A stretch of 64,000 nucleotides of DNA, from the NCBI GenBank assembly GCA_950295325.1, contig OX485806.1, forward strand, positions 44,821,169 to 44,885,168, written 5' to 3'. Source of the stretch: Polytrichum commune (Eukaryota; Streptophyta; Polytrichopsida; Polytrichales; Polytrichaceae). A program made the position numbers and the translations under genes. The first letter of the stretch is position 1; each line of letters opens with the position of its first letter. Below the pieces are notes generated by a model, which was not told the DNA's origin, ran no database searches, and was given only the letters and a program-made list of their open reading frames with translations. Positions 19,562-42,650 of this stretch are shown one piece after another.

Positions 19562-22500
19562 ACCACCTAAGACCCCTAATTTCAAACTCACAAACTTGCA
19601 AACTAAACTTAATATGACAATTTCTAACCACCTAATACCCCTCCCAGTAGCTATCTCGGCACCGAGACACCCAAATGAAGTTCAATGAAACTGCCTCACA
19701 TATGATTCAGACCCCTACTTTCTCACTTACAAACATGCAAACTAAACTTAATCAGACCATTTCTAACCATTTCAGACCACCTAAGACCCCTAATTTCAAA
19801 CTCACAAACCTGCAAACTAAGCTTAATATGACAATTTCAAACCACCTAATACCCCTCCCAGTAGCTATCTCGGCACGGAGACACCCAAATGAAGTTCAAT
19901 CAAACTGCCTCACATATGATTCAAACCCTTACTTTCTCACTTACAAACATGCAAACTAAGCTTAATCAGACCATTTCTAACCATTTCAGACCACCTAAGA
20001 CCCCTAATTTCAAACTCACAAACCTGCAAACTAAGCTTAATATGACAATTTCTAACCACCTAATACCCCTCCAAGTAGCTATCTCGGCACGGAGACACCC
20101 AAATGAAGTTCAATCAAACTGCCTCACATATGATTCAGGCCCCTACTTTCTCACTTACAAACATGCAAACTAAACTTAATCAGACCATTTCTAACCATTT
20201 CAGACCACCTAAGACCCCTAATTTCAAACTCACAAACCTGCAAACTAAGCTTAATATGACAATTTCTAACCACCTAATACCCCTCCCAGTAGCTATCTCG
20301 GCACGGAGACACCCAAATGAAGTTCAATCTAACTGCCTCTTACAAACATGGAAACTAGACTTAATCAGACCATTTCTAACCATTTCAGACCACCTAAGAC
20401 ACGTAATTTCAAACTCACAAACCTGCAAACTAAGCTTAATATGACATTTTCTAACCACCTAATACCCCTCCCAGTAGTTATCTCGGCACGGAGACACCCA
20501 AATCAAGTTCAATCTAACTGCCTCACATTTGATTCAGGCCCCTAGTTTCTAACTTACAAACATGCAAACTAAGCTTAATCAGACCATTTCTAACCATTTC
20601 AGACCACCTAAGACCCCTAATTTCAAACTCACAAACCTGCAAACTAAGCTTAATATGACCATTTCTAACCAGCTAATACCCCTCCCAATAGCTATCTTGG
20701 CACGGAGACACCCAAATGAAGTTCAATCAAACTGCCTCACATATGATTCAAACCCTTACTTTCTCACTTACAAACATGCAAACTAAGCTTAATCAGACCA
20801 TTTCTAACCATTTCAGACCACCTAAGACCCCTAATTTCAAACTCACAAACCTTCAAACTAAGCTGAATATGACCATCTCTAACCACCTAATACCCCTCCC
20901 AGTAGTTATCTCGGCACGGAGACACCCAAATGAACTTCAATCAAACTGCCTCACATATGATTCAGGCCCCTACTTTCTCACTTACAAACATGCAAACTAA
21001 ATTTAATCAGACCATTTCTAACCATTTCAGACCACCTAAGACCCCTAATTTCAAACTCACAAACCTGCAAACTAAACTTAATATGACCATTTCTAACCAC
21101 CTAATACCCCTCCCCGTAGTTATCTCGCCACGGAGACACCCAAATGAAGTTCAATGAAACTGCCTCACATATGATTCAGGCCCCTACTTTCTCACTTACA
21201 AACCTGCAAACTAAGCTTAATCAGACCATTTCTAACCATTTCAGACCACCTAAGACCCCTAATTTCAAACTCACAAACCTGCAAACTAAGCTTAATATGA
21301 CAATTTCTAACCACCTAATACCCCTCCCAGTAGCTATGTGGGCACGGAGACACCCAAATGAAGTTCAATCAAACTGCCTCACATTTGATTCAGGCCCCTA
21401 CTTTCTAACTTACAAACATGTAAACTAAACTTAATCAGACGATTTCTAACCATTTCAGACCACCTAAGACTCCTAATTTCAAACTCACAAACCTGCAAAC
21501 TAAGCTTAATATGACCATTTCTAACCACCTAATACCCCTCCCAGTAGTTATCTCGGCACGGAGACACCCAAATGAAGTTCAATCTAACTGCCTCACATTT
21601 GATTCAGGCCCCTACTTTCTAACTTACAAACATGCACACTAAGCTTAATCAGACCATTTCTAACCATTTCAGACCACCTAAGACCCCTAATTTCAAACTC
21701 ACAAACCTGCAAACTAAGCTTAATATGACCATCTCTAACCACCTAATACCCCTCCCAGTAGTTATCTCGGCACCGAGACACCCAAATGAAGTTCAATCAA
21801 ACTGCCTCACTTAAGATTAAGGCCCCTAGTTTCTAACTTACAAACATGCACACAAAGCTTAATCAGACCATTTCTAACCATTTGAGACCACCTAAGACCC
21901 CTAATTTCAAACTCACAGACCTGCAAACTAAGTTTAATATGACAATTTCGAACCACCTAATACCCCTCCCAGTAGTTATCTCGGCACAGAGACACCCAAA
22001 TGAAGTTCAATCTAACTGCCTCACATTTGATTCAGGCCCCTACTTTCTAAGTTACAAACACGCAAACTAAGCTTAATCAGACCATTTCTAACCATTTCAG
22101 AGCACCTAAGACCCCTAATTTCAAACTCACAAACCTGCAAACTAAGCTTAATATGACAATTTCTAACCACCTAATACCCCTCCCAGTAGTTATCTCGGCA
22201 CAGAGACACCCAAATGAAGTTCAATCAAACTGCCTCACATATGATTCAAACCCTTACTTTCTAACTTACAAACATGCAAACTAAGCTTAATCAGACCATT
22301 TCTAACCATTTCAGACCACCTAAGACCCCTAATTTCAAACTCACAAACCTGCAAACTAAGCTTAATATGACAATTTCTAACCACCTAATACCCCTCCCAG
22401 TAGCTATGTTGGCACGGAGACACCCAAATGAAGTTCAATCAAACTGCCTCACATTTGATTCAGGCCCCTACTTTCTAACTTACAAACATGCACACTAATC

Positions 22501-25500
22501 TTAATCAGACGATTTCTAACCATTTCAGACCACCTAAGACCCCTAATTTCATGCTCACAAACCTGCAAACTAAGCTTAATATGACCATCTCTAACCACCT
22601 AATACCCCTCCCAGTAGTTATCTCGGCACAGAGACACCCAAATGAAGTTCAATCTAACTGCCTCACATATGATTCAGGCCCCTACTTTGTAACTTACAAA
22701 CATGCAAACTAAGCTTAATCATACCATTTCTAACGATTTCAGACCACCTAAGACCCCTAATTTCAAACTCCCAAACCTGCAAACTAAGCTTAATATGACA
22801 ATTTCTAACCACCTAATACCCCTCCCAGTAGCTATGTTGGCACGGAGATACCCAAATGCAGTTCAATCAAACTGCCTCACATATGATTCAAACCCTTACT
22901 TTCTCACTTACAAACATGCAAACTAAACTTAATCACACCATTTCTAACCATTTGAGACCACCTAAGACCCCTAATTTCAAACTCACAAACCTGCAAACTA
23001 AGCTTAATATGACAATTTCTAACCACCTAATACCCCTCCCAGTAGTTATCTCGGCACAGAGACACCCAAATGAAGTTCAATCAAACTGCCTCACATATGA
23101 TTCAAACCCTTACTTTCTAACTTACAAACATGCAAACTAAGCTTAATCAGACCATTTCTAACCATTTCAGACCACCTAAGACCCCTAATTTCAAACTCAC
23201 AAACCTGCAAACTAAGCTTAATATGACAATTTCTAACCACCTAATACCCCTCCCAGTAGCTATCTTGTCACGGAGACACCCAAATGAAGTTCAATCAAAC
23301 TGCCTCACATTTGATTCAGGCCCCTACTTTCTAACTTACAAACATGCACACTAATCTTAATCAGACGATTTCTAACCATTTCAGACCACCTAAGACCCCT
23401 AATTTCATGCTCACAAACCTGCAAACTAAGCTTAATATGACCATCTCTAACCACCTAATACCCCTCCCAGTAGCTATGTGGGCACGGAGACACCCAAATG
23501 AAGTTCAATCAAACTGCCTCACATTTGATTCAGGCCCCTACTTTCTAACTTACAAACATGCAAACTAAGCTTAATCAGACCATTTCTAACCATTTCAGAC
23601 CACCTAAGACCCCTAATTTCAAACTCACAAACCTGCAAACTAAGCTTAATATGACCATCTCTAACCACCTAATACCCCTCCCAGTAGCTATCTCGGCACG
23701 GACACACCCAAATGAAGTTCAATCAAACTGCCTCACATATGATTCAGGCCCCTACTTTGTAACTTACAAACATGCAAACTAAGCTTAATCATACCATTTC
23801 TAACGATTTCAGACCACCTAAGACCCCTAATTTCAAACTCCCAAACCTGCAAACTAAGCTTAATATGACAATTTCTAACCACCTAATACCCCTCCCAGTA
23901 GCTATGTTGGCACGGAGATACCCAAATGCAGTTCAATCAAACTGCCTCACATATGATTCAAACCCTTACTTTCTCACTTACAAACATGCAAACTAAACTT
24001 AATCACACCATTTCTAACCATTTCAGACCACCTAAGACCCCTAATTTCAAACTCACAAACCTGCAAACTAAGCTTAATATGACAATTTCTAACCACCTAA
24101 TACCCCTCCCAGTAGCTATGTGGGCACGGAGACACCCAAATGAAGTTCAATCAAACTGCCTCACATTTGATTCAGGCCCCTACTTTCTAACTTACAAACA
24201 TGTAAACTAAACTTAATCAGACGATTTCTAACCATTTCAGACCACCTAAGACTCCTAATTTCAAACTCACAAACCTGCAAACTAAGCTTAATATGACCAT
24301 TTCTAACCACCTAATACCCCTCCCAGTAGTTATCTCGGCACGGAGACACCCAAATGAAGTTCAATCTAACTGCCTCACATTTGATTCAGGCCCCTACTTT
24401 CTAACTTACAAACATGCACACTAAGCTTAATCAGACCATTTCTAACCATTTCAGACCACCTAAGACCCCTAATTTCAAACTCACAAACCTGCAAACTAAG
24501 CTTAATATGACCATCTCTAACCACCTAATACCCCTCCCAGTAGTTATCTCGGCACCGAGACACCCAAATGAAGTTCAATCAAACTGCCTCACTTAAGATT
24601 AAGGCCCCTAGTTTCTAACTTACAAACATGCACACAAAGCTTAATCAGACCATTTCTAACCATTTGAGACCACCTAAGACCCCTAATTTCAAACTCACAG
24701 ACCTGCAAACTAAGTTTAATATGACAATTTCGAACCACCTAATACCCCTCCCAGTAGTTATCTCGGCACAGAGACACCCAAATGAAGTTCAATCTAACTG
24801 CCTCACATTTGATTCAGGCCCCTACTTTCTAAGTTACAAACACGCAAACTAAGCTTAATCAGACCATTTCTAACCATTTCAGAGCACCTAAGACCCCTAA
24901 TTTCAAACTCACAAACCTGCAAACTAAGCTTAATATGACAATTTCTAACCACCTAATACCCCTCCCAGTAGTTATCTCGGCACAGAGACACCCAAATGAA
25001 GTTCAATCAAACTGCCTCACATATGATTCAAACCCTTACTTTCTAACTTACAAACATGCAAACTAAGCTTAATCAGACCATTTCTAACCATTTCAGACCA
25101 CCTAAGACCCCTAATTTCAAACTCACAAACCTGCAAACTAAGCTTAATATGACAATTTCTAACCACCTAATACCCCTCCCAGTAGCTATGTTGGCACGGA
25201 GACACCCAAATGAAGTTCAATCAAACTGCCTCACATTTGATTCAGGCCCCTACTTTCTAACTTACAAACATGCACACTAATCTTAATCAGACGATTTCTA
25301 ACCATTTCAGACCACCTAAGACCCCTAATTTCATGCTCACAAACCTGCAAACTAAGCTTAATATGACCATCTCTAACCACCTAATACCCCTCCCAGTAGT
25401 TATCTCGGCACAGAGACACCCAAATGAAGTTCAATCTAACTGCCTCACATATGATTCAGGCCCCTACTTTGTAACTTACAAACATGCAAACTAAGCTTAA

Positions 25501-28500
25501 TCATACCATTTCTAACGATTTCAGACCACCTAAGACCCCTAATTTCAAACTCCCAAACCTGCAAACTAAGCTTAATATGACAATTTCTAACCACCTAATA
25601 CCCCTCCCAGTAGCTATGTTGGCACGGAGATACCCAAATGCAGTTCAATCAAACTGCCTCACATATGATTCAAACCCTTACTTTCTCACTTACAAACATG
25701 CAAACTAAACTTAATCACACCATTTCTAACCATTTGAGACCACCTAAGACCCCTAATTTCAAACTCACAAACCTGCAAACTAAGCTTAATATGACAATTT
25801 CTAACCACCTAATACCCCTCCCAGTAGTTATCTCGGCACAGAGACACCCAAATGAAGTTCAATCAAACTGCCTCACATATGATTCAAACCCTTACTTTCT
25901 AACTTACAAACATGCAAACTAAGCTTAATCAGACCATTTCTAACCATTTCAGACCACCTAAGACCCCTAATTTCAAACTCACAAACCTGCAAACTAAGCT
26001 TAATATGACAATTTCTAACCACCTAATACCCCTCCCAGTAGCTATCTTGTCACGGAGACACCCAAATGAAGTTCAATCAAACTGCCTCACATTTGATTCA
26101 GGCCCCTACTTTCTAACTTACAAACATGCACACTAATCTTAATCAGACGATTTCTAACCATTTCAGACCACCTAAGACCCCTAATTTCATGCTCACAAAC
26201 CTGCAAACTAAGCTTAATATGACCATCTCTAACCACCTAATACCCCTCCCAGTAGCTATGTGGGCACGGAGACACCCAAATGAAGTTCAATCAAACTGCC
26301 TCACATTTGATTCAGGCCCCTACTTTCTAACTTACAAACATGCAAACTAAGCTTAATCAGACCATTTCTAACCATTTCAGACCACCTAAGACCCCTAATT
26401 TCAAACTCACAAACCTGCAAACTAAGCTTAATATGACCATCTCTAACCACCTAATACCCCTCCCAGTAGCTATCTCGGCACGGACACACCCAAATGAAGT
26501 TCAATCAAACTGCCTCACATATGATTCAGGCCCCTACTTTGTAACTTACAAACATGCAAACTAAGCTTAATCATACCATTTCTAACGATTTCAGACCACC
26601 TAAGACCCCTAATTTCAAACTCCCAAACCTGCAAACTAAGCTTAATATGACAATTTCTAACCACCTAATACCCCTCCCAGTAGCTATGTTGGCACGGAGA
26701 TACCCAAATGCAGTTCAATCAAACTGCCTCACATATGATTCAAACCCTTACTTTCTCACTTACAAACATGCAAACTAAACTTAATCACACCATTTCTAAC
26801 CATTTGAGACCACCTAAGACCCCTAATTTCAAACTCACAAACCTGCAAACTAAGCTTAATATGACAATTTCTAACCACCTAATACCCCTCCTAGTAGATA
26901 TCTCGGCACAGAGACACCCAAATGAAGTTCAATCAAACTGCCTCACATATGATTCAGACCCCTACTTTCTAACTTACAAACATGCAAACTAAGCTTAATC
27001 AGACCATTTCTAACAATTTCAGACCACCTAAGACCCCTAATTTCAAACTCACAAACCTGCAAACTAAGCTTAATATGACAATTTCTAACCACCTAATACC
27101 CCTCCCAGTAGCTATCTCGGCACCGAGACACCCAAATGAAGTTCAATGAAACTGCCTCACATATGATTCAGGCCCCTACTTTCTCACTTACAAACATGCA
27201 CACTAAGCTTAATCAGACCATTTCTAACCATTTGAGACCACCTAAGACCCCTAATTTCAAACTCACAAACCTGCAAACTAAGCTTAATATGACAATTTCT
27301 AACCACCTAATACCCCTCCCAGTAGTTATCTCGGCACAGAGACACCCAAATGAAGTTCAATCTAACTGCCTCACATATGATTCAGGCCCCTACTTTGTAA
27401 CTTACAAACATGCAAACTAAACTTAATCAGACCATTTCTAACCATTTCAGACCACCTAAGACCCCTAATTTCAAACTCACAAACCTGCAAACTAAGCTTA
27501 ATATGACCATTTCTAACCACCTAATACCCCTCCCAGTAGCTATCTCGGCACCGAAACACCCAAATGAAGTTCAATCAAACTGCCTCACATATGATTAAGG
27601 CCCGTACTTTCTAACTTACAAACATGCAAACTAAGCTTAATCAGACCATTTCTAACCATTTCAGACCACCTAAGACCCCTAATTTCAAACTCACAAACCT
27701 GCAAACTAAGCTTAATATGACCATCCCTAACCACCTAATACCCCTCCCAGTAGCTATCTCGGCACCGAGACACCCAAATGAAGTTCAATCAAACTGCCTC
27801 ACATATGATTAAGGCCCCTACTTTCTAACTTACAAACATGCAAACTAAGCTTAATTAGACCATTTCTAACCATTTCAGACCACCTAAGACCCCTAATTTC
27901 AAACTCACAAACCTGCAAACTAAGCTTAATATGACAATTTCTAACCACCTAATACCCCTCCCAGTAGTTATCTCGGCACGGAGACACCCAAATGAAGTTT
28001 AATCTAATTGCCTCACATATGATTCAGACCCTTACTTTCTCACTTACAAACATGCAAACTAAGCTTAATCATACCATTTCTAACGATTTGAAACCACCTA
28101 AGACCCCTAATTTGAAACTCACAAACCTGCAAACTAAGCTTAATATGACCATTTCTAACCACCTAATACCCCTCCCAGTAGTTATCTCGGCACGGAGACA
28201 CCCAATGAAGTTCAATCAAACTGCCTCACATTTGATTCAGGCCCCTACTTTCTAACTTACAAACATGCACACTAAGCTTAATCAGACCATTTCTAACCAT
28301 TTGAGACCACCTAAGACCCCTAATTTCAAACTCACAAACCTGCAAACTAAGCTTAATATGACAATTTCTAACCACCTAATACCCCTCCCAGTAGCTATGT
28401 TGGCACGGAGACACCCAAATGAAGTTCAATCAAACTGCCTCACATATGATTCAGGCCCCTACTTTGTAACTTACAAACATGCAAACTAAACTTAATCAGA

Positions 28501-28508
28501 CCATTTCT
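19562..28508. repeat. 214-bp satellite array, left block (about 42 monomers)
   Basis: The period is 214 bp, as seen from recurring positions such as 19675, 19889 and 20103. Diagnostic blocks are CCACCTAAGACCCCTAATTT, CTCGGCACGGAGACACCCAA and AACTGCCTCACATATGATTC. Each monomer is an internal dimer: ACAAACATGCAAACTAAGCT and ACAAACCTGCAAACTAAGCT lie 75 bp apart and are followed by similar sequence. Because 214 is not a multiple of 3, frames shift at each monomer and the many 60-94-codon frames are by-products. The array starts at the left 2.84-kb LTR and ends abruptly inside a monomer at the truncated gag. Confidence 0.95.
21226..26790. repeat. Higher-order duplication in left satellite: two 2782-bp blocks (13 monomers each)
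   Basis: Variant monomers recur at an offset of 2782 bp (13 x 214): 21632/24414, 21846/24628, 22274/25056, 22702/25484, 23130/25912 and 23558/26340. I saw no differences in the places compared. A shorter 1070-bp (5-monomer) relation links 22702 with 23772. Confidence 0.85.
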
Positions 28509-29179
28509 TGGGAGAACAAATTAGAAAAACTTGGTTCATAAATGGACTAAGAAAGGAATATGAGAAGTATGTAAACATCTTGCCAAGTGATACTTTGGAG
28601 GAAGCACTAGCTTCGGCACGAAAGATTGAGATGAGCAAGACAAAGAAAGAAAGAATGAGAGAAGAAGAATCAAGTGGAGATTCGAGGAGCGATTCCGATG
28701 ATGAAAGAAGAAAGAAGAAAAAGGGAAAGGCTAAGAAAGCCGATATTACTAAGGATGATTTAAAGGCTCTTAAACGAGAGATAGAGGAAGTGGCAATCGG
28801 TACTCGGAAGTTTAGAACGGGAGTCCCTTGCCAGAAATGCCGGAACGAAGGTCATTATTCGAATGAATGCCAATTAAAGAATTGCACAAATTGCAATAGT
28901 ACTACCCACAATACAAATGAATGTGTTTATGATGGAAGAAGGCGAGAAAGGAGATATGGAGTGAATCAAGTACAACCACAATTTAACAACAACCGGAGAA
29001 GGGCGGGAGCCGAACCTCCGAGATTTAGAGATGAAGAGAGACCGCGGTTCGGGGAGAATCGGCGAGATATGAGATACCCCTATCAAGGGAGAGATAAGCA
29101 AAGGGATGAAGAATACCCCTATCACGGGCAGGAATACCGAAGCCAATACTACCCAAGGGAAGAAGAAAACCCCTATTAG
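28509..29179 (+). pseudogene. gag: gag C-terminal part with two CCHC knuckles
   Basis: The frame enters from satellite; the first recognisable gag residues (GEQIRKTWFINGLRKEYEKY) are the end of a capsid-type domain. A Lys/Arg/Glu-rich linker follows. Then come two CX2CX4HX4C zinc knuckles, CQKCRNEGHYSNEC and CTNCNSTTHNTNEC, at about residues 108-139 counted from 28508. Next is an Arg/Tyr-rich tail with repeated YPY..G motifs. A TAG at 29177-29179 stops the frame where earlier tail repeats have Gln or His. The same frame continues at once into pol, so this was probably one gag-pol frame. The capsid N-terminus is lost. Confidence 0.85.
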
Positions 29180-32100
29180 GGCGGCCCTAGAGGACCCATT
29201 AATCACGGGAGATTGGAATACCCCAGGGAGGTGATGGACAACAATGGCCAAAAAGCCGCGCCGAGAATCGGGTACACTGGCCTACCACGACGGGAAGGCA
29301 ACGCCGACGAGTGCTATTATTGTCATCAACAGGGTCATAGAAAGCCGGAGTGCTCATTGTTTAGGAAACATCAAGATGAAGCGAATGAATACGCGAAGAA
29401 GCCCATGGTGGCGGCAAATGTAGTGACACCAAGTGTGTGTGTGATGACGAGAGCCCAAAGAGCGGCGAAAGAAAACTCTAAGGAAGAGAGTGAATCGGAA
29501 GATGAAGAAGATGATAGAAAGAGCGAAGACTCGGAGAATAGCGATAGTGATGATGAAAAGGATACCATAAAGGTTATGGATGAAGAAAGCGAAGAGCTTA
29601 GTGAGAATGAGAATGAGCCAAAGAATAGGCGAAAAGAACACGAGTCACAAGTGTTGCGGGATGCACCGGAGGACTCGGAGTGGAAGAAGAAGCGGGAGAT
29701 ACACCGCCAAGTAACGAATACGATCAAGGAGATCCAACGGGAAGCGGGCGAAGATCTTTTAGAGCCAGAAGATCTGGCCCCAAAGTACCAAAAGTCAGCT
29801 AAGGGAAAAGCGACGAAAGAAGAACCCCGGACGAGGGTAGGACAAATTATTCGAAAAGTACTAGATTCAACTCAAGCAAATATAACTATAGGGCAACTTT
29901 TGGAGATAGCCCCTTATTGCAAAAGAAAAGTAATAGAAGCAATTTACACGAACGGGCGAGATGAGAGGGAAGTACCTCAAACATATCTCGTGGCCACAAA
30001 AGACTTTGATGAAGAAATGCCGATGATAACGGTATGGACTAAGAATCGACGAATATCCAACGTGTTACTAGATGGAGGATCGGGAGTGAACCTCATTACG
30101 GACACTTTGATGGACAAATTGGGAATAGAGAAACAACTTGAAGTAGCACCATTCACAATCAAAATGGCGGATCAAAGGAAGGTAACGCCACTTGGAATCA
30201 TCAAGAATTTGAAAATCAATATTGGAGGATTAACTTTTAAGATTACCGTGACGGTGATAAAGATGGAGAATCAAGAGAATAGCTACTCAATGCTACTTGG
30301 ACGACCATGGCTTAAGCAAGCACGTGCCAAGCATGATTGGGGAAAGAGTCAACTAATCTTGTATCAAAATGGAATAGATGTATGTATTGGTACTAATCGA
30401 AGACCAAAGCTTCCGGATTCATCAAGACCAATCAATATCGAAGGTTTTGATTGGGAATCCGGATTAACCGATGAAGAGGAACAAGTAGTTTATCAAGCTT
30501 ATCCAAGCTTACACCACATAGCCGATGTGGAACTAGATGGATTGAAGCTATTATATGAAACCGAATGCAATATGGTCATGACAAGCATCGAAGGAGAAAA
30601 CGAGGAGAATATCAACAAAAAGGGACTCAAAGCAATCGTGAAGAAAAAGGAGAAACAAATTCCAAATCTCAAAGAAGGAACTCCAAAACAAAAAGAGGAT
30701 ATGGGAGAAAAATCCATTTATCCGTCCCATTTCTATGAAACAAAAGAAGGAGAACAAGCAATCGATCAAACACCGGCATCCGAAGCGGTTAAGGGAAAAA
30801 CAATCGCGGGATGGACCGTCGAAGATGAAGATATGATAAAAGAAATTAACCTTGGGACAACGGAGGACCCCAAAATGGTACGAATAGGAAAGGAACTTGA
30901 CCCTACCTATGAAAACCAAGTGATTGAGATACTAAGAGATTATAAGGATGTATTCGCATGGACGTATGAGGATATGAAAGGGATACCACCTCACATTTGT
31001 GAGCACAAGATAGAACTCAAACCAAACACCAAGCCGATCAAGCAAAGCCGTTATCGAATGAATCTGAATTATGCGGCGAAGGTGAAGGAAGAGATCGACA
31101 AATTGCTCAAGGCCATATTCATATACCCGGTAGATAGAGCGGAATGGCTTTCACCGATAGTGATAGTACCGAAGAAAAATGGGAAGTTGAGAGTATGCGT
31201 AGATTATCGGAAACTCAATGGAGCAACAAAATCCGACCCATTTCCATTACCATTCACGGAGGAGATTCTTGAAACGGTAGCTGGACACGAGATGTTGTCA
31301 CTACTAGACGGGTTTAGTGGTTACAATCAAGTGAGGGTAGCACCGGAAGATCAACCGAAAACTTGTTTTATTACGGAGTGGGGAGCTTATGCTACTAGAG
31401 TGATGTCATTTGGACTTATGAGTGCGCCATCTACTTTTCAAAGGGGAGTAATGACGATTTTCGCGGAGTTTCTAAATGATTTTATGAAAGTATTTTTAGA
31501 CGATTTTAGTATATATGGGACAAAGGCGGATCATATCAAGCACCTTAAGCTTTGTCTTCAACGATGTAGAGAGTGTGGGTTAAGTCTTAATCCGGAGAAG
31601 TGCATGATTTGTGTGATCTCGGGGAGATTACTTGGTCATGTGGTTTGCAAAGAGGGACTTTTGATAGATCCCAAAAAAATCTCCGTGATTCAAAACTTAC
31701 CACCACCAACAAATGTCAAGAGTTTACGAGCTTTCTTAGGCTCGGTAACATACCATAGGAGATTCATATGGATGTTTGCACAAATTACGAGACCTCTTTA
31801 TGCTCTCCTCAAAAAAGATGAAGCATTTGAATGGACGACAAATTGCCAACAAACATTTGAACTAGTCAAGAGACTTCTAACTACGACACCAATATTAATG
31901 GCTCCAAATTGGTCAATGGAATTTCATGTCCATTGTGATGCATCAAACATAGCCATTGGAGCAGTACTAGCGCAAAAGGTGAATGGGAACATCGACTCGC
32001 CGATTTACTATGCAAGCCGATTATTAAATCAAGCGGAAAAAAATTATAGCACGACGGAACGAGAAGCCTTAGCAATGGTATATTCGGTAAACAAATTCCG

Positions 32101-32368
32101 ACACTACCTTTTGGCGAATCATTTCGTGTTCTACGTGGATCATCAAGCATTGTTATACTTGATAAATAGACCGATAATCTCGGGGAGAATCACAAGATGG
32201 ATGCTTCTTCTACAAGAATACGATTTTGAGATTGTGTATATGCCTGGAAGACGACACGTGATGGCGGATCACCTCTCAAGAATCGATAATGGAGAACCAC
32301 CTACCGGATGCCAATTTATTTTGTATGGAAGTACTAGAAGAGGAAGAAGATTACATGGAAAAAAGTGA
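29180..32368 (+). pseudogene. pol: gag-pol continuation: third knuckle, aspartic protease, RT, RNase H
   Basis: The ATG at 29213 is in the same frame as gag. Domains in order: a third CCHC knuckle (CYYCHQQGHRKPEC, residues 34-47); an acidic linker; a protease with VLLDGGSGVNLIT near residue 283 (DGG in place of the usual D-S/T-G); RT with LRVCVDYRKLN and catalytic FLDDFSIYG near 31495-31520; and RNase H with CDASNIAIGAVL, TEREALAMVYS and YVDHQALLY, ending near GRRHVMADHLSR. All catalytic blocks look intact over about 1,000 codons. At about 32300 the frame shifts: the residues expected next (an LPDANLF-like segment) lie in another frame, so the last 20 codons before TGA at 32366-32368 are out of frame. 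Confidence 0.9.
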
Positions 32369-34457
32369 GCAAGTGAATGAAGAGGATGAATGAAGAGAAG
32401 AAAGTAAGACACCATGTCTAGAATGGTACATGGTATATGTCCAACCAACAGAAGATTAGAGAAAACCGTTCAAAGAATATCTCAAGTATGGAAAATTGTT
32501 AACAATCGGAATAACGGAAGAGGAACAAACGCGCATAAAACGGGCTAGTGAGCCCTACATCATGGATGGAGATAAATTAATACGAATTAGCCCAAGTGGA
32601 GAATCAAAAACATGCATAGCGGGACAAGTTATTGAGGAGATCATCGCGGAAGCGCATGAATAAGAAGGTCATCATCAAACCTTCGGAAATACTTGGTTCA
32701 CCATATTAAGTGGACCTTATTGGTGGCCAACAAGAAAGAGGGACGTAGCAAGTTATTGCGAAGAATGTCCGGTTTGCTTACGACAAAATGAAGGACGAAT
32801 ATATGAACTAGAAAATGATACTCTAGTACTAGACTCGGTATCGGATGACGAGTCAACTACGGAAGAAAACCACTCGACGGATTGGAGAACACCCTATTTT
32901 GAGTACTTAAGAAATGGACAAGTAAATGGAGAAAATATTACCAATGAAAAACAATTTCGATGGGCAAACAAATGCAAGCGGTTCGTTCTCAACGGAGGAA
33001 CTTTGATAAGATTACTACCCAACGGAGATACGCGAATATGCGTCACACGAAGTCGAGGAGGAAAACTCATAGCGGCCACTTACAACGCAAAAGGCAAGCA
33101 TTTGACCTTACCTATGACTAAGCAATTAATATTCTTTAGTCCTTATTGGTGGCCTACAATTGACGAAGACATCAAGTATCACGCGGAATACGAATGTGAA
33201 GAATGCATGTTACAACTCAATGGGAAGCAAGAAGAGATGAATCTAAAAGATAAGCAAACGACTACATTAAAAAAGATGTCACCATCCGATTGGAGAAAAC
33301 CTTACGTCGAATACTTGTCATTCGGAAAGGTAACTAGCAATGAATTAACCGAAGAAGAGAAGGAACGAATTGCGAATAGAAGCCAATTCTTCGCCATCAT
33401 GAATGGCAAACTAATGAGACAATTTGTCGCCAATGAGATACCAAAAGAATGCATTTTGGAGAATCGAATTCTACAATTCTTAAGGGAACTTCATGAAAAA
33501 CATCAAACATGCGAAGAAATGATAAAACAAGCGACACAAGGATCATATTGGTGGCCTACAATGACTCGCGATATTCAAAATTTTACCAAACAAAGAAATG
33601 GTACTACACCAACGCGACAAAAGAATGAGTCAACCAAAGTGGATTGGAGAACGCCAATAGTAGAGTATTTGATTCAAGGAACAACCAGAGATCGGTATCC
33701 ATTTGAACAAGAGAAAAAAACTTACTTTATGGAAGAGGGAGAATTACGGAAGGAAGTAGACCACGGAGAAACCAAGATATGTATCGCGGGAGATCCAATC
33801 AAGCATCTAATCAAACGAGTGCATGAACAAAATGATTATCATCTCAATCCGAACGATACTATTCAACAAATTCTCAACGGGCCTTATTGGTGGCCTACTA
33901 TAGCACAAGACACGGGACATTATATCAATGGAGAATGTCCGAGATGTAAGAAGAAAGCAACAACTAAAATACAATGCGGAGCAATTACCACCGATCCACA
34001 AGAGGATTGGAGAACACCATTTATTGACTACTTATCGCATGGGATATTGACAACACCGGCAACGACTTCTCAAAGACAACAAATAGCGATAAGAAGTAGA
34101 CCTTTTCAACTAATCAATGGAGACCAATTAATCAAGGAAGGGGCCGACGGAATGAAAAGGAGATGTGTCTCCGGACCAATTACCGAGGCGATCATCGCCG
34201 AAGCACATGAAGGCATTGCGGGAGGACACTTCGCGGCAAACATCACATTACACAAAATATTGACAGCTCTTTATTGGTGGCCTACTATGAAAATGGATGT
34301 GTATATGTATTGCAAACAATGCGACATATGCCAAAGAGTGGGACCAAAAGTCTCCAAATCCACACAACCATTACACCCAATCATGCCTACGGAAGTCTTT
34401 CAAAGATGGGGATTAGACTTTATAGGTCCAATCAATCCTCCCACCAAAGGTACTTAA
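32340..34457 (+). pseudogene. pol: Five tandem RNase H-integrase linker plus H2C2 zinc modules
   Basis: One frame (the frame of 33003) carries five copies of a module of about 354-426 bp: a DWR-P-YL-G linker, a G-L-R/K segment, a Cys-Ile segment, His residues, the signature YWWPT, then a CxxC. Module starts are 32454, 32880, 33288, 33642 and 34005; YWWPT lies near 32718, 33145, 33550, 33890 and 34275. Module 5 is the canonical one and leads into the integrase core (CDICQRVGP, then WGLDFIGP). Module 3 has lost its CxxC pair. Stops: TGA 32391-32393, TAG 32457-32459 (at the Trp of the first DWR motif), TAA 32661-32663 and TAA 34455-34457. Copies differ strongly from each other, so the amplification is old. 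Normal elements have one such module. Confidence 0.85.
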
Positions 34458-37400
34458 AATAGATACATCATCACCGCCACGGATTACACTACCAAATGGG
34501 TTGAAGCAAGAGCACTAAAGGATAACACCGCGGCATCTACCGCGAAATTCATATTTGAGGAGATCATCACCAAATTTGGATGTCCGATTGAACTAGTTAG
34601 TGACCAAGGGAGTCACTTTCTAAACGAGACAATCCAAATTCTAACCAAGACATTTATGGTCTTGCATCGTAAATCGACAACTTACTATCCTCAAGCCAAC
34701 GGACAAGCCGAAAGCACGAACAAAGTCATTAAAACGACACTTACCAAAATGGTAAACGCCAATCGCACGGATTGGGACACTAAACTATATGTGGCACTAT
34801 GGGCATATAGAACGGCATACAAAGTCACCACCAAGCATACACCATTCTCATTGGTATTCGGAACGGAGGCATTACTTCCATTAACGTTCATTTACAACGA
34901 GGAGAATCTCCAAAGGAATCAAGAATGGCATCCCGTTCTTAAACGGAGAATGGAACAATTAAGGACGTTGGACTTGACCCGAATCGAGGCAGAGGAGAAT
35001 ATAGAACATGTCCAAATTATGAGAAAAAGGCGACAAGATAAAACCTTAATGGAAGGAAAGAGGTGCAAACATTGCAAGAAAACCTCTTATGATACTAATG
35101 AGGAAACTCATCAAGCAAGGGAGAAATTAGAGAGGAACAAAACTCCCAAATTCTACAAGGGTCAAAAGATTCTATGGCATCAAAGGATGAACAAACTTGG
35201 TCCAAGCAAATTTAGGACCCGATGGAGCGGACCTTACGAGATTATGGAAATTTACGACAACAACACAGTGGATGTAAGCACATTGCAAGGAGAAAATCTT
35301 GGAAGGGTAAACATGAGTAAGATTAAGCCTTACCATGAACCCCTTGAAACAAAGGCATATGTTTTGGAAGTTGGTGACGTCACAAACTCGTCACTTCACA
35401 AAACAAATAGAAGTTATAAAAACGGATCCAACGCTACCAATGGAGAATCAAGCTATTCGGAACCATGTAAATTTTACAAAGGGCAAGGGATGATTATCAC
35501 ATCCCCGGATTATGATGAAATACATCACAAAATGATTGAATGCTATCGCATACAACCAGTGGAGGCAGAGGATAAACACAAACTACTTACAAAAATAACG
35601 ACAGAGAATTACACTATCCAGCCGTTATCGGAAGCAACCACGAATCAACAATCAACAAATGGGCCACAAACAATGGAAATTGAAAACTTGATTTTTCAAA
35701 CACCAACAAATTACGACAAAGATGAACCACACAAGCATCCATTCATGAACTCACGTACAAGCAAGTTGTACGACCACGATCCAACTACGCCAAGCAAGGA
35801 CAACACACATGCCAAGTACAAAGTGCCCAAGGGTTTCTCATATCATGAGTTCTTAAGCATGTTAACCAACATATGGTTACGACACATGTCTAAGATTTTG
35901 AGTTTAGTAATGGTAATACTTATTATGGGGAATTGGTACTCACAAAAGAATTCATCCATCCATGTTTCCAACAACAAAATTTCAAAAGGGTCTACCGAAT
36001 CCATGAACCCACAGTTTCACCAAGCTAATTGTATAAATAAGCAGGCTCTAAGGACAAAATTCCGTCAACACTCGAAAAAATTTCAAAGGATAAAACCAGG
36101 GTTTTCAAAATTTGTAGTTAAATCTGATCTTAAATCCAATTTTATTTTTATTGGAGGGGTCCGCACAAGGCGAACCCCAAGAAAGGCGAGAACACTGCAC
36201 AAGGCAGCGTTCTCTTTAATGTTCATCTGCACAAAACACACCACAGGTCAGAAATTGTTAGTAGAAACAGGTATTACAACCAAGACGGATAGGGTCTGTC
36301 ATGGCACCAGTACGCCACCTCAAGGCCAGGTCAATATTTATCACACTAGGGAACCTAGCTGGAGTTGCCAGCAAGCTGCCCGGGAAGTAACAAGATTAAC
36401 CAACACCATCATTAGCAAGACTGTGCTAACCAAGCCAGTAACAGAACCACCTACGTTATTTTCGAAGGGGATCAACAGTTTGAGTCTTCTTTTTCACTTA
36501 TTCAGAGTGACGATCAAGAAAGGTCTTTTTTGTTCGAAGAAGTCTGTAGTGTGCTCAGAGAGTGACAAAAGCATTCTTCAGCTTAACCCTTATGCTGAAT
36601 TAGGAACAGTTTCCATCACACTTAGTTTAGTCTGTAGCAATTACACAGCACAGAACAAAATTTCTGTAATAGACTCAGGGTATTCGGATGAACAGTCGCT
36701 AGTAGAGGTTGATTCTGATCACTTGATAGTAAACAGTAGATTCGGTCAGCTGATAATTAGTCCAAATATTCTTCAACTGACAGGAAAGGGTAGCCTTTAC
36801 AAAACAGAAGCAAGAGTTGTCACCATGAGGACTCCAGCAAAAGAAAAAGGAAAAGCTGCCCAAATGAGGGCAGTAGATGACATTGTATTTAGCACAGAGA
36901 TGGCCGCGCTCGATTTTGAGCCATCACATGCAGAGGAAACATTTTTACAACTGATAGGACTTGACAGATTTGTGACAAGGGTCACTTGGGAGATGTTAAA
37001 TGTCTCAGTGGTTCAAGAAGTGCTTACAAATCTCAATTTGGAGACAAGGGAATCTGCTCTCAATGGGCAGGTCTTTCCAATTTTCGGCAAGGATTGGAGG
37101 AATACAATGAGAGCAGTGTTCTTCCTAACGCCATTTTCGGCAAAAAGAGAACCAGGGACTGCCAAAGTAACGACTACACATATCTTCCCAAATATCAGCG
37201 ACAAGGCCAAAACCAAAGCGGGAACCTGCAAAGTTGTGGAGTGCACAATATCTGAAGCAAGAAGACCACTAAGGTTCTTTAATTCCCTCTTTCTGTTGCG
37301 CACAAGCACTCACACAATTCCTTGCCAAGCAGTTGCACACTTAGCTGATGCCCTTAATGGCAATTCTGTAGATTGGCCAGCATTGTTTAAAGATTTCATA

Positions 37401-39155
37401 TGGGCAGAACTCAAAAATCTTAAAGAGGAACTCTTTAAGGATAAGTCCACACTGCTCAAGACAATGGTGGGACCTCCTATCACTATGATTCTTATGTCAG
37501 ACGGGCTGCTAAGCGTCCAACAGGAAATTGAGGCAGGTTTCTTAGAAACCTCAATCCTGCAAGACAAATCTGCCCCTAACTCCAAGAAGAGGAAGCACAA
37601 CACAGAAATGGCACAAGTAGGGTTAGATAGAGGAGAACCATCATCAGAAAAGGGACTATTAGCCAATATACCCCCAGAAATAGAGGTAGCAGTAGTAACA
37701 CCCATTGTGAAACCAGTGGAACAACAATGGTCTTCCAAAATATTGGAAGAAATTTTGGAAAAATTGACACAAACAAACTCTTCTATAGAGCAAACTCGGC
37801 AGACATGCACAGCTTTACTCCCAAAGGTACAACAGGGGAGTTCTCCTGAACAGGATCTTGCTAAAGGAACCATTCACAAGTTACAAGCTGAACTAGCAGA
37901 GGAGAAACTACAGAAAACACTCCTCCAAGATAAACTAGATCACATAACAGAGCACCATAGCACTGAACTCAAAGCCATCCGCAACGCCGAACAAGACCAC
38001 CTCCTGCGCGTCAAAAATCTCAGCAGGTCTCTACTCAACCAGAAGCACTCAGCCGCACAGATCTTGAGCAATTTCCAGCAGATCAAGCAAACAACTTCAA
38101 CTCTGAAGACAGAGTGCCGAAACCTGATCCAACAATCGGCCACAGAAATCTCCAAACAGCTTAAACACTTGAACCTGAACTATTTTCCGACCACAAATCA
38201 ACAGCGAGCTTTGGAGTTAACAAAAATGGAACTCTTCGACCAATGGTTGAGCAAACCAAAGGCCACAAAAGAGGAACTTATTGCCAAACAAACCTTTGAC
38301 AGAATCACATCCAAAATAGGCCACATGTTCAAATCACTTCGAAACGAACTGGCCCAGACAGTTGCCGAACGGGAGAATCTACAGGAGAAATTAGAACAAT
38401 ATGAGCGATATGCTCCAATGGAATGGGAAACCCTATTCGGCCATGAACTGATAGAAAATTCGGACAACCTACTCACAACCACAATGAGAAACTTACCCCC
38501 GCCGGTGAGTATTTTTCAATACTATCAGGCTTTTAAGCCTATCATCCTAAAGGCAAGTAACCTACCAGATCTGAAACAAAAGAGCCACATCTCAGAGGCA
38601 CAATTTCAAGAATTATGGCCAAAAGCCAATTCGTCAGCAAAGGACCTTCTTGTATTCATGTGGATACTTAAGGATCTGATTGTTCCAAGGGGCGTAATGG
38701 AGATCACAACAGTAAACCCAAATTTCTACCTCACCAGGTTTTGCATTGCAGCTCTCAATCACATCCACAAGCATCATGAGGCATTTTACACAAATATTGC
38801 AATCAGAAACTCTCTGCCACAAATTGATCCATATGAGCCAGAAACTCTTAAGGAGATTCAAGAGCTGACCACTTCCAAATTTCCAGAATTCCTCACAGCC
38901 ATTGATATATTGGCGGCAGAGGACACTGCTCTTCTACATGAAGCTACTCATCAACACCAAGACCTTATCAGAAAGTTTCCGGACTCATTTCCGCAAGGAT
39001 TTCACCGAATACAGCTCAATGGGTACATAACAAGGGCTTTTGAAGATCGGAAGCGCACATTGGAAAACAGGACTATATCTACACCACATGCTCGCACTCT
39101 ACTCTACCTTCCCCAATATGATCCAGGGAGCATGAGGATCCCTAAGAGATCCTGA
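34458..39155 (+). CDS. pol: Integrase core and C-terminus fused to about 1,270 extra codons
   Basis: In frame with the zinc modules after a single TAA at 34455. Integrase DDE residues: D in TATDYTTKW, D in VSDQGSHF, E in QANGQAE. The C-terminal domain has RWSGPYEIMEIYDNNTVD (GPY/F type) near 35220 and ends near 35350. From there the frame stays open to TGA at 39153-39155. The extension has a hydrophobic stretch (KILSLVMVILIMGNWY, about 35890-35940). An internal ATG at 36825 could start a separate 776-codon protein beginning MRTPAKEKGKAAQ. It also contains HLADALNGNSVDWPALF, a KKRK basic patch and a coiled-coil-like helix (TIHKLQAELAEEKLQKTLL, about 37870-37930). I recognise no known domain. 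It is uninterrupted, unlike gag-pol. Confidence 0.75.
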   Translation, partial: NRYIITATDYTTKWVEARALKDNTAASTAKFIFEEIITKFGCPIELVSDQGSHFLNETIQILTKTFMVLHRKSTTYYPQANGQAESTNKVIKTTLTKMVNANRTDWDTKLYVALWAYRTAYKVTTKHTPFSLVFGTEALLPLTFIYNEENLQRNQEWHPVLKRRMEQLRTLDLTRIEAEENIEHVQIMRKRRQDKTLMEGKRCKHCKKTSYDTNEETHQAREKLERNKTPKFYKGQKILWHQRMNKLGPSKFRTRWSGPYEIMEIYDNNTVDVSTLQGENLGRVNMSKIKPYHEPLETKAYVLEVGDVTNSSLHKTNRSYKNGSNATNGESSYSEPCKFYKGQGMIITSPDYDEIHHKMIECYRIQPVEAEDKHKLLTKITTENYTIQPLSEATTNQQSTNGPQTMEIENLIFQTPTNYDKDEPHKHPFMNSRTSKLYDHDPTTPSKDNTHAKYKVPKGFSYHEFLSMLTNIWLRHMSKILSLVMVILIMGNWYSQKNSSIHVSNNKISKGSTESMNPQFHQANCINKQALRTKFRQHSKKFQRIKPGFSKFVVKSDLKSNFIFIGGVRTRRTPRKARTLHKAAFSLMFICTKHTTGQKLLVETGITTKTDRVCHGTSTPPQGQVNIYHTREPSWSCQQAAREVTRLTNTIISKTVLTKPVTEPPTLFSKGINSLSLLFHLFRVTIKKGLFCSKKSVVCSESDKSILQLNPYAELGTVSITLSLVCSNYTAQNKISVIDSGYSDEQSLVEVDSDHLIVNSRFGQLIISPNILQLTGKGSLYKTEARVVTMRTPAKEKGKAAQMRAVDDIVFSTEMAALDFEPSHAEETFLQLIGLDRFVTRVTWEMLNVSVVQEVLTNLNLETRESALNGQVFPIFGKDWRNTMRAVFFLTPFSAKREPGTAKVTTTHIFPNISDKAKTKAGTCKVVECTISEARRPLRFFNSLFLLRTSTHTIPCQAVAHLADALNGNSVDWPALFKDFIWAELKNLKEELFKDKSTLLKTMVGPPITMILMSDGLLSVQQEIEAGFLETSILQDKSAPNSKKRKHNTEMAQVGLDRGEPSSEKGLLANIPPEIEVAVVTPIVKPVEQQWSSKILEEILEKLTQTNSSIEQTRQTCTALLPKVQQGSSPEQDLAKGTIHKLQAELAEEKLQKTLLQDKLDHITEHHSTELKAIRNAEQDHLLRVKNLSRSLLNQKHSAAQILSNFQQIKQTTSTLKTECRNLIQQSATEISKQLKHLNLNYFPTTNQQRALELTKMELFDQWLSKPKATKEELIAKQTFDRITSKIGHMFKSLRNELAQTVAERENLQEKLEQYERYAPMEWETLFGHELIENSDNLLTTTMRNLPPPVSIFQYYQAFKPIILKASNLPDLKQKSHISEAQFQELWPKANSSAKDLLVFMWILKDLIVPRGVMEITTVNPNFYLTRFCIAALNHIHKHHEAFYTNIAIRNSLPQIDPYEPETLKEIQELTTSKFPEFLTAIDILAAEDTALLHEATHQHQDLIRKFPDSFPQGFHRIQLNGYITRAFEDRKRTLENRTISTPHARTLLYLPQYDPGSMRIPKRS

Positions 39156-39574: not shown

Positions 39575-39579
39575 ATGGT
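39575..39579. other. Target-site duplication ATGGT, left copy
   Basis: ATGGT just before TGTGGTACTT; the matching ATGGT is at 42420-42424 just after GGGTTCACA. Five base pairs is normal for Ty3/gypsy or Copia integration. Confidence 0.85.
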
Positions 39580-42419
39580 TGTGGTACTTTTGGGCCACCC
39601 CCTTTCGAGGGAGTCTAAAAGTATCACACAAGCCCTTCGGTGAAGGTGGCCTGCATTTGCAGGCGCCCAAGCCGAACCCGGATGATAGGTGTATAACGTG
39701 AGTAGTTAGATTTTTAAGGGAGATTAAATATGCGTCGTAGTACCTCCGGAGGTTAGGCCTTAGTTTTTTACTAGTGTGGCTTTAAACTCCACTAACCAAT
39801 TTCATATCTAGTTCTAACCTTAACCTACAACCTATTCTACGCGCAGACGCACCAGCCTTGAAACCAAGGCAATCCTAATTTGTGAATTGGGATGGTTCTG
39901 ATACACCCAACCGGGTGTGACTCATACCACCCCAACTCAACGAACGGAATAACGACAATTTGATGGACCATTCAATTCTTCCTATTTCTTTATTTAGTTC
40001 TATTTAGTTTTCTAAGCGGGGGAATTTGGCCTAAGTCCCACCCTTCACACAAATTCCTTCTTAATTACTTACTTTTGTTTGCACGTCCTAACTTACTACA
40101 TTAACATATTAGGCATCACCCCTTACCTCGGGTCTCTTGCCAACAAGGGTTTACGATTTATTTTGTATGTTTTGATTGTTAAATGTGTTTACACTGGATA
40201 GACCACGAAATGCAACTCAATGGGACCAAGGTGACGGGCGACCTGTAGGTTCAACCTGTTGCGCAATCTTCATAAATTGGGGCCATTACTCCCAATCTAT
40301 GGGGCCAACAACATAATAGTGGATTCGCGGGTCATTAACCCCACCTTTCCACCAACAACATTCAGAGTGGTCGTGTCGGTGATTAATCCGACTTACCACA
40401 CACGAAACTTGCTAATAAATGAAGCTACTACCACAAAACATACCAAGGGCCCCGAAAACAATGGAATTGGGTACTCCCTTGGCGGTCAAGTGGTCAAGCC
40501 ACTTGACCTTACGAGATAGGTGAGTGGGTTTAGAAATGCGTACCTTAGCCGTGCTCCCTCCAATCCTAAATGGAAGGCTTAAGGTTAGTTAATTTACCTC
40601 AATTTTCCTCGGTTGATTTGGGCTTGATGTAGGCCGAGCCGCTACCTCCTTCCTTGCTCCACTTTCCGAGCGTCGACCTTGCCTCCTTCTTTATAACTAG
40701 TTTGGTAGTAAGCGTACCTTAGTTAACAATTAAAATATAAAGTGTTATTCTGCCCTGTAATTTAATCCTAAGCATAATATTTATACTTAGTGCACCAAAT
40801 TATCTTTCCAATGATCTAAAAATCACTCTAATCGGATAAGAAATGTAAAAGTTATGAGGGTTGGAAGTGTGAGGTCGATTCAACCGACCCTTCCAACCCA
40901 CCTATCTACCTTCTAACTTCAAAAATTCATAGCACATTCCTTACTACTTGGATCTAGGCTTTCCTTATACCATTGGAAAGCTATGAACAAGCTCTAACTA
41001 GAAAAATTATGACATCAGCAGGTTAAGCTAATAGAAATTCAGCGGACTCCTTGTAACACAGCAGTCAATCAAGAAGGCTTAAACTATGTATCTCGCCTTC
41101 AACAATTCATATCTAATTCAAATCTTAGTCAAATCAAACGTTCTATATGACCCTGGAGAGATATTAAAAAGATGTATTTGATAAAAATATGTGATTAGAA
41201 AGGTAAGCCGAAGTGAACCCAGCAGGTCCTCTGTAATGCAGCAGTCAACCAAAAGTTCTCAAACTATGTGTCCCATCTTGCACAATTCATATCTAATTCA
41301 AATCATGCTCAAATCAAATGTTCTAAGCCATTTTGGAAAGCTACACAAAAGTTCTACTTGGAAAAAATATAATTTCTTGGAATTAAAATTCCTATTGGGC
41401 TCGCAGGTCTGATCCAGCAGCCGCTACCCACAAGACCACCCAGTTTTTCTACTCCATCTTTGAAAATCCATAACTAATTGTCATCTCAACCAAATCACAA
41501 ATGGGAAACGGCTATGGATAGCTATATGAAATCTCTCTAAGAGAAAAATGATAAGTATCTTGTTCTAGCTTTTGAACTAAGCCTTCAGGGCATTGGCAGA
41601 TGAGGTCTATAATGCCTCTACTCAAAACTCTACCATCCAACCTACCTCTACAAAAAAAGGAATAATTTTGTTGGTGTGTTAATAAACACACAACCTAACT
41701 AGGAGAGAGAGAGTAGAGGAGGTTCTCAAGCCTTTCTTTTAGACCATTGAGAATACATGCTAAAGGATTTTTTCCTAACTACATTGAAGCAGGGCTTCGC
41801 CCAAAAACTAGAGAAAGAGAGAGAGCTACAAGGTGGAAGGAGGGGTTTTTAAACCCTCTCACAAAAGGGTTGGACCCCTCCTCCACCGGATCCATTTTTC
41901 AAACCCTTTCCCGAAATTTTGGCTCGGGGGTTTTCCCGGTTGAGGTTGCCACCCTCTCGCCGAGGTGGCTCCGACAAAAAACCTTTAGAAATCTTTCTAA
42001 TTTTTCCGCCATCGAGTTGGCAAGGGGGCAAGTGGGCAAGTATCCCCCTTGCTCTCTTTCTTTTTTGTCTTCAAAATTTCTTCACGCCGATTTTATCTTC
42101 TTACGTAAAACACCTCCAATAGTCTTGTGTGCCTCACACTAACTAATAAACTAACACTTGCTTAGCTAGCATTTACTAACATTTGCTTAATAGCTAGCAT
42201 CTACTAATATTTGCTTAGCTAGTTGTTTTTACTAGCTAGCATATTTTTTCTACTTTGCTATCTTCTAGCACTACTTAGTTTCATTTTGACCTTCCTTCTT
42301 CTAGGCTAAATGCTAAATGAACTAATTTTCCCTAAATTCCCTATCAATTCTAACTTTTAATCCTAACATTCTAACTAAAAGTGATCCCGCAGAGTGGTGG
42401 ACCACTCAAAGGGTTCACA
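39580..42419 (+). mobile_element. 2.84-kb solo LTR, right copy, inserted in the gypsy 3' LTR
   Basis: Begins TGTGGTACTTTTGGGCC and ends GGGTTCACA (TGTG...CACA), flanked by the direct repeat ATGGT. It is the near-identical inverted partner of 16718-19561 (2840 versus 2844 bp). Nothing resembling gag or pol is inside and no internal LTR pair was seen, so I call it a solo LTR; a non-coding LTR element is the alternative. It contains four degenerate tandem units of about 178 bp (40850-41590). It is the youngest event visible on this side because it splits another LTR. Confidence 0.85.
40850..41590 (+). repeat. Degenerate tandem units of about 178 bp inside the 2.84-kb LTR
   Basis: Recurring marks: CAGCAGTCAATC at 41059, CAGCAGTCAACC at 41239 and CAGCAGCCGC near 41415 (steps about 180 and 176); each is followed by AATTCATATCTAATTCAAATC-like text and a GGAAAGCTA...TTCTA...GAAAAA block. 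A fourth, earlier unit precedes 41000. The left LTR carries the same units (17600-18310). Confidence 0.7.
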
Positions 42420-42650
42420 ATGGTATTTTGAAGAAGCATGATTATAAATTATGTAAGAATTTTAGATTCTTATACATTATGAAGATGCATTATGAACATA
42501 TAGGCCAAGGATAGATTCTACTAGTATGTTTAAATACAAATCATTGGAATCAAGCAAAGGTGAAGACTTGATTACATTCTCAAAAGGAACTACAATGTAG
42601 CCAAGACAAGGATATAGTAGAATCTTAGAAATATGAACATTCAAATGGTA

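What the first reader, a model, noticed from the sequence alone, without database searches (positions are those of the whole stretch)
32340..34457. Gypsy element with five tandem integrase zinc-binding (H2C2) modules
Seen directly: YWWPT occurs five times in one frame, each time preceded at a similar distance by a DWR-P-YL-G linker and usually followed by CxxC. Known: Ty3/gypsy integrases carry one such N-terminal module, needed for multimerisation and LTR-end handling. Inferred: ancient amplification of the RNase H-integrase linker plus zinc domain, giving a polyprotein with an array of zinc modules. Modules differ strongly and four keep the Cys pair, so they were probably kept under selection for some time. 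Possible roles are extra binding to LTR ends, to satellite DNA, or a spacer in the polyprotein.
Basis: partly seen in the sequence, partly recalled or inferred. Interest (0 to 1): 0.88.

Follow-up and report, generated by a model that had tools for sequence, protein, structure and literature searches.

The report
Retrotransposons with arrayed integrase docking modules
A group of plant jumping genes carries 5, 8 or 11 copies, kept by selection, of the zinc-holding front part of its DNA-inserting enzyme, where other elements looked at in the same genome carry one, which suggests a new way of building that enzyme.

Summary
Five modules stand in one frame at 32424-34364. The repeated unit is more than linker plus zinc finger: one internal module of a relative folds like residues 9-104 of foamy-virus integrase, i.e. 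N-terminal extension plus HHCC domain (NED+NTD). The window's own genome holds three array sizes: five modules in 16 of 16 long window-type copies, eight in six and eleven in four of ten fetched arrays of a sister type. In L039 one open frame runs from RNase H through the array into the catalytic core. Eight elements of the next lineages, of 68 places listed, have one module each. The extra three modules of the eleven-type trace to one old in-frame block duplication. Modules are under purifying selection: dN/dS 0.05-0.24 between subfamilies in frame, 0.73-2.52 in the wrong frames. Arrays 99.7-99.8% identical lie on different contigs. Six literature searches listed no report. Mechanism is inferred: most likely a multivalent NED-NTD scaffold for integrase assembly.

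The parts
28496..29179 (+). 3' part of a gag-like frame with a CCHC knuckle; its 5' end is cut off where it meets the 214-bp satellite at about 28508
   Evidence: PF00098 19.9 bits, E 7e-4, just under its cut-off of 20.8; satellite junction
29180..32368 (+). protease, reverse transcriptase and RNase H frame (1062 aa)
   Evidence: RVT_1 85 bits, RT_RNaseH 117 bits, gag-asp_proteas 26.7 bits (just under its cut-off of 28.2)
32424..32795 (+). NED+NTD module 1 (stops at 32457 and 32661)
   Evidence: module HMM 138 bits; stops
32844..33236 (+). NED+NTD module 2 (first His ligand missing in this copy)
   Evidence: module HMM 127 bits; ligands
33246..33632 (+). NED+NTD module 3 (CxxC lost)
   Evidence: module HMM 124 bits; ligands
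33597..33974 (+). NED+NTD module 4 (HMM ends overlap those of module 3)
   Evidence: module HMM 129 bits; ligands complete
33969..34364 (+). NED+NTD module 5, the one next to the catalytic core and nearest to ordinary single modules
   Evidence: module HMM 147 bits; splits first in the tree, 35% identical to outgroup modules against 22-26% for modules 1-4
34458..35300 (+). integrase catalytic core, preceded by a TAA at 34455
   Evidence: rve 33 bits on residues 3-78 of the piece from 34458; alignment A2, which contains last module plus core of relatives, matches foamy-virus integrase E 6e-20 and Ty3 E 4e-11
35301..39155 (+). long open C-terminal extension without a credible Pfam match
   Evidence: open frame 34458-39155; pieces 34458-35660 (rve only), 35661-37400 (none) and 37401-39152 (best E 0.095) scanned
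39576..42420 (+). probable 3' LTR
   Evidence: 99.72% identical to an inverted copy at 16721-19565; begins TG

Best explanation
What it is: a lineage of Ty3/gypsy retrotransposons of a plant in which the N-terminal unit of integrase (NED plus HHCC zinc domain, about 130 residues) was tandemly duplicated inside pol, between RNase H and the integrase core. It was then kept as an ordered array of 5, 8 or 11 diverged modules under purifying selection (shown). The last module keeps the ordinary integrase role next to the catalytic core (inferred from conservation and tree position). How it works: most likely the extra modules stay joined to integrase and act as a multivalent docking array, giving each chain in cis the additional NTDs that some retroviral intasomes obtain by adding integrase subunits. 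They would contact other integrase cores, the LTR DNA ends or a chromatin partner, and so stabilise the intasome or its targeting (inferred). My odds: architecture and selection about 0.97; cis docking array about 0.4.
Against: No model shows array against core: the last module and core of the P0006 model are under pLDDT 50, and the window model is poor (39). Net charge of modules ranges from -12 to +10, so DNA binding by all is not indicated. Module 3 of the five-type lacks CxxC in 15 of 15 copies and position 6 of the 8/11 type lacks ligands in 3 of 5, so zinc is dispensable in some modules. [quoted passage not shown] Two degraded relatives, L061 and L062, show no module and one half module upstream of the core. 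Protease cuts between modules were not tested.
Confidence: 0.5

Rival explanations
1. The array is cut out of the polyprotein by the element's protease and works apart from integrase, as a multi-zinc-module accessory protein, for example coating cDNA or RNA or binding chromatin. Only the last module stays on the enzyme.
For: Some linkers between modules are long and acidic. In the 11-module type the duplicated block carries along sequence that stands at the RNase H/integrase border, where a cut is expected. Best matches of window modules 1-4 in the 8-module copy L043 are 30-54% identical, against 72% for the last module.
Against: No cleavage site was shown. In L039 array and both neighbours are in one open frame.
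Confidence: 0.25
2. The modules bind host factors or target DNA (satellite or heterochromatin) and diverge with them, giving integration-site choice.
For: The window copy abuts a 214-bp satellite. In dN, modules 1-4 of the five-type and positions 2-7 of the 8/11 type change faster than the last. In PMC9065133 (passages) integrase NTDs add contacts to a host factor.
Against: Between subfamilies dN/dS stays below 0.25, no sign of positive selection. Position 1 of the 8/11 type changes no faster than the last (dN .068 against .072). The satellite map could not be made.
Confidence: 0.2
3. The array is a neutral by-product of template switching, tolerated as a spacer.
For: Tandem duplication during reverse transcription is easy (general knowledge). 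Zinc ligands are lost in two positions.
Against: Purifying selection in each module position tested, with wrong-frame controls. Ligands and NED motifs are kept in most positions. Only three sizes in 26 arrays.
Confidence: 0.08
4. Assembly artefact or recent local duplication in one copy.
For: None beyond the odd architecture.
Against: Copies with arrays lie on several contigs. Proteins of other database records, whose species I do not know, share them. Modules of the window copy are only 24-38% identical to each other.
Confidence: 0.01

Closest known systems
Ty3/gypsy (Metaviridae) integrase; solved Ty3 intasome 7q5b
   Different: Five, eight or eleven N-terminal units in place of one
Spumavirus (PFV) and gammaretrovirus (MLV) integrase NED+NTD
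   Different: Single copy there (general knowledge); arrays here
Multi-subunit intasomes such as that of maedi-visna virus (16 integrase chains)
   Same: Many NTDs per complex; works-like comparison only (PMC9065133, passages)
   Different: Extra NTDs come from extra chains, not from one chain
Plant Ty3/gypsy clades of PMC6317226 (Tat with additional RNase H; Phygy, Selgy, OTA)
   Same: Plant gypsy elements; pol altered by an added domain in Tat
   Different: [quoted passage not shown] clade membership of this lineage was not tested

Membership tests
Ty3/gypsy LTR retrotransposon | pol order protease, RT, RNase H, integrase | tested here: met
   Pfam order in window pieces, the protease match just under its cut-off; RNase H, H2C2 and rve in one frame of L039; RT, RNase H and H2C2 in one frame of L056
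Ty3/gypsy LTR retrotransposon | LTRs flanking the element | tested here: inconclusive
   A 2845-bp repeat lies at the 3' side; its other copy in the window is inverted and beyond the satellite; the 5' end of this copy is missing; LTRs of other copies not fetched
Ty3/gypsy LTR retrotransposon | one HHCC N-terminal integrase domain (usual, not strictly defining) | tested here: not met
   5, 8 or 11 domains; one in 8 of 8 fetched elements of neighbouring lineages
Integrase N-terminal domain (PF17921, HHCC) | H-x(n)-H and CxxC ligands | tested here: met
   Both pairs in 13, 12, 0, 14, 15 of 15 copies at positions 1-5 of the five-type (L017-L019 are near-identical, so not independent; in three of the misses at positions 1-2 the script found no WWP anchor); in 5 of 5 at seven of eight positions, 2 of 5 at position 6, and 9 of 9 in the extra block of the 8/11 type
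Integrase NED+NTD fold | fold match to PFV or MLV integrase N-terminus | tested here: met
   [not shown]
Chromovirus (Ty3/gypsy with chromodomain) | chromodomain after the core | tested here: inconclusive
   No chromodomain reported by Pfam in pieces of 34458-39152 of the window; other copies not scanned beyond the core
Phygy / Selgy / OTA clades | RT-integrase tree position | not tested
   No reference sequences of these clades were at hand

The most novel reading that the evidence does not exclude
A single polypeptide carries the N-terminal domains that other integrases gather by oligomerisation: an integrase with a built-in scaffold of 5, 8 or 11 NED-NTD modules, its size changed by whole blocks of three. 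The extra modules have become specialised by position, some without zinc, and build a larger or otherwise organised intasome or cDNA complex.
Probability: 0.35. Interest if true: 0.92.

Novelty: new variant of a known kind. Interest (0 to 1): 0.82.

Why it matters
Elements with 1, 5, 8 and 11 integrase N-terminal units exist within one genome, the array modules under selection and some arrays near-identical on different contigs. That makes it possible to ask directly what an integrase N-terminal domain does beyond catalysis and how intasome size is set. It also shows a blind spot: a reference survey of plant LTR elements discarded elements with repeated domains as likely prediction errors (PMC6317226, passage seen), so such lineages could be missing from classification libraries.

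Tried and rejected
Rejected: assembly artefact or one-off duplication (copies on several contigs; 24-38% identity between modules of the window copy). Neutral spacer. Capture of a foreign zinc domain (array modules form one clade, SH-aLRT 99; but the program warns of long branches meeting). My first reading that array size grew from 5 to 8 to 11 was dropped: the block duplication is older than the split of the sampled 8- and 11-module copies.

Led nowhere: viral contigs and plasmids, no relatives. Structure of window modules 4-5 (mean pLDDT 39). Literature searches: nothing in their listings describes repeated integrase N-terminal domains; of these papers I saw listings only, save passages of PMC6317226 and PMC6338049; the library holds open-licence papers only. 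Searches looked for a Polytrichum genome paper with no useful result. One search was for NED function. Host name: seven large contigs of 42-78 Mb make me think of a Polytrichaceae moss (n=7, recalled); not tested. Satellite mapping in the genome: not completed. Four more places with cores 58-74% identical or array pieces 61-63% identical were fetched late: L060 and L063 hold broken arrays of several modules, L061 no module in the 2.9 kb before its core, L062 one half module. I cannot tell whether L061 and L062 are truncated array elements.

Limits: genome searches score only the best candidates (73 of 1525, 138 of 2788), so copy numbers are lower bounds. The ten 8/11 arrays were mostly chosen for long open frames, which biases towards intact copies. 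The module HMM was built from 60 units that include window modules, so its scores for them are not independent; Pfam is. In the 8/11 type 8-10 of 10 pairs were kept per position, the rest dropped for saturated or too low dS. All-pair ratios in the five-type are .209 .140 .220 .293 .105, those of the extra block .098 .088 .182 (2-3 of 3 pairs); wrong-frame controls were run for the subfamily pairs and positions 1-8 only. L024-L038 were left out of the ligand count, as broken, partial or (L024) with a partial first module; the subfamily dN/dS pairs used six and four copies. L059's first module is cut by the edge of the fetched stretch.

Full report
What is in the window. The finding lies in the pol region of a broken Ty3/gypsy element. 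RT and RNase H are in one frame (29180-32368), the array in another (32340-34457), and the catalytic core follows a TAA at 34455. Five YWWPT motifs in one frame, each with its DWR-type start, are confirmed, and they are the only ones in six frames of the window. Pfam Integrase_H2C2 scores 124 bits on the 597-aa frame; four stretches pass E 0.001 and five pass E 10. Module 3 has lost CxxC, the others have it.

Array sizes in the genome. The window lies in a 408-Mb genome. A search with the array gave 117 matches from 73 scored of 1525 candidates. All 16 long window-type copies, the window included, have five modules (in L024 the first is partial). A sister type, mostly 55-62% identical over the last one to two modules and about 30-40% elsewhere, has frames of up to 3716 aa. 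Of ten arrays fetched, mostly chosen for long open frames, L042, L043, L055, L056, L057 and L058 have eight modules, and L039, L040, L041 and L059 eleven (the first module of L059 is cut by the fetched edge). In L039 RNase H, eight H2C2 stretches passing E 0.1 on their own and the rve core fall in one 1700-aa translation without a stop; in L056 RT, RNase H and seven H2C2 stretches do.

Single-module relatives. By integrase core, window-type places are mostly 80-95% identical to the window, a second group mostly 65-74%, and 68 further places 45-53% (138 of 2788 candidates scored; groups counted by me). I fetched eight of those 68, at 46-53%: eight of eight have one module at 69-77 bits, and their other matches score below zero. 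Four places in between or odd were fetched last: L060 and L063 are broken arrays of several modules, L061 shows no module in the 2.9 kb before its core and L062 one half module. The last two may be truncated copies; they do not fit the simple picture and I leave them open.

History. With the eight single modules as outgroup, the 53 array modules of seven copies form one clade (99). The last modules form one branch (97) and the other 46 modules the other (97); among these module 1 forms a clade (80) and the internal 37 another (95). Last modules are 33-35% identical to the outgroup, the others 15-27% (four copies). First and last modules are shared by all three types, and module 4 of the five-type groups with modules 6-7 of the eight-type (93). 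Hence the common ancestor already had an array. In the eleven-type, modules 1, 2 and 3 fall in one clade each with modules 4, 5 and 6 and with modules 1, 2 and 3 of the eight-type (99 each). The junction of module 3 to module 4 joins the tail of module 3 to sequence found at the RNase H border, alike in L039, L040, L041 and L059: one in-frame duplication of a three-module block. It is old. The two blocks are 56-73% identical on average, while the shared modules of eight- and eleven-type copies are 74-84%, and dS between the blocks is about 2-3 or saturated. Moreover copies do not sort by size: eleven-module L040 is closer to eight-module L042 than to eleven-module L039 at all eight shared positions. 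So the eight-type may have lost a block, or the block moved by recombination (the extra block is 92-95% identical among eleven-types); I do not claim growth from 8 to 11. Support values are SH-aLRT from quick searches on 131-132 columns, and the program warns of long branches meeting.

Selection. NG86 dN/dS between two subfamilies of the five-type (24 pairs) is .172.115.213.242 and .092 for modules 1-5; over all pairs it is .209.140.220.293 and .105. In the 8/11 type (8-10 pairs kept of 10) it is .074.162.088.144.124.189.099 and .055. The subfamily and 8/11 alignments read in the two wrong frames give 0.73-2.52. Modules are therefore constrained as protein, the last most. Zinc ligands are complete in 13, 12, 0, 14 and 15 of 15 copies for the five-type; in the 8/11 type in 5 of 5 at seven of eight positions, 2 of 5 at position 6, and 9 of 9 in the extra block. 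P0001, a near relative at 78%, still has CxxC in module 3. So zinc ligands were lost in some modules while selection on their sequence went on.

Recent spread. Eight-module arrays on C5 and C6 (L042, L055) are 99.8% identical over 4.3 kb, and eleven-module arrays on C4 and C2 (L041, L059) 99.7% over 4.4 kb. This fits recent transposition; I did not fetch their LTRs.

Function. Shown: in-frame, conserved, multi-module arrays joined to RNase H and the core. From papers: in the 16-chain maedi-visna intasome NTDs from numerous chains contribute to the core and/or to IN-vDNA and IN-IN interactions (PMC9065133, passages); [quoted passage not shown] Inferred: the array supplies such docking units in cis. 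Against: module charges range from -12 to +10, so not all need bind DNA; release of the array by protease is a serious rival, and no model shows array and core together.

Novelty. Six searches showed no report in their listings. [quoted passage not shown] I call it a new variant of a known kind: a Ty3/gypsy element by domain order, with an integrase architecture that I could not find described.

Confidence. Architecture and selection: about 0.97. Cis docking array as mechanism: about 0.4.

Noticed in passing
16721-19565 and 39576-42420: Two LTR-like copies 99.72% identical in opposite orientation, with a 9-kb block of 214-bp satellite between the inverted one and the cut gag end (28508). It looks like an inversion or a second truncated insertion.
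   Followed up: partly
35301-39155: The frame of the integrase core stays open for more than 1200 codons after 35301; scanned in pieces it gave no credible Pfam match (best E 0.095 beyond the core).
   Followed up: partly
19562-28508, 44071-57664, 62172-62761: Arrays of a 214-bp satellite, 88-97% matches between copies. Their place in the genome could not be mapped because the search machine did not answer.
   Followed up: partly
C4 of G000: By my count, 12 of 26 window-type elements or fragments lie on C4, which is about one seventh of the genome; only 73 of 1525 candidates were scored.
   Followed up: no
14650-15027 (-): Fragment that looks by eye like the integrase core of a different gypsy element.
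   Followed up: no
G000:C6:10217529-10268604 (L017-L019): Three five-module copies within 51 kb are 99.98-100% identical over 4782 bases, probably a segmental or tandem duplication rather than three insertions.
   Followed up: no
L039, L040, L041, L059: The extra three-module block is 92-95% identical between eleven-module copies whose other modules are far more diverged (L039 against L040 55-88%), which hints at recombination between subfamilies.
   Followed up: partly
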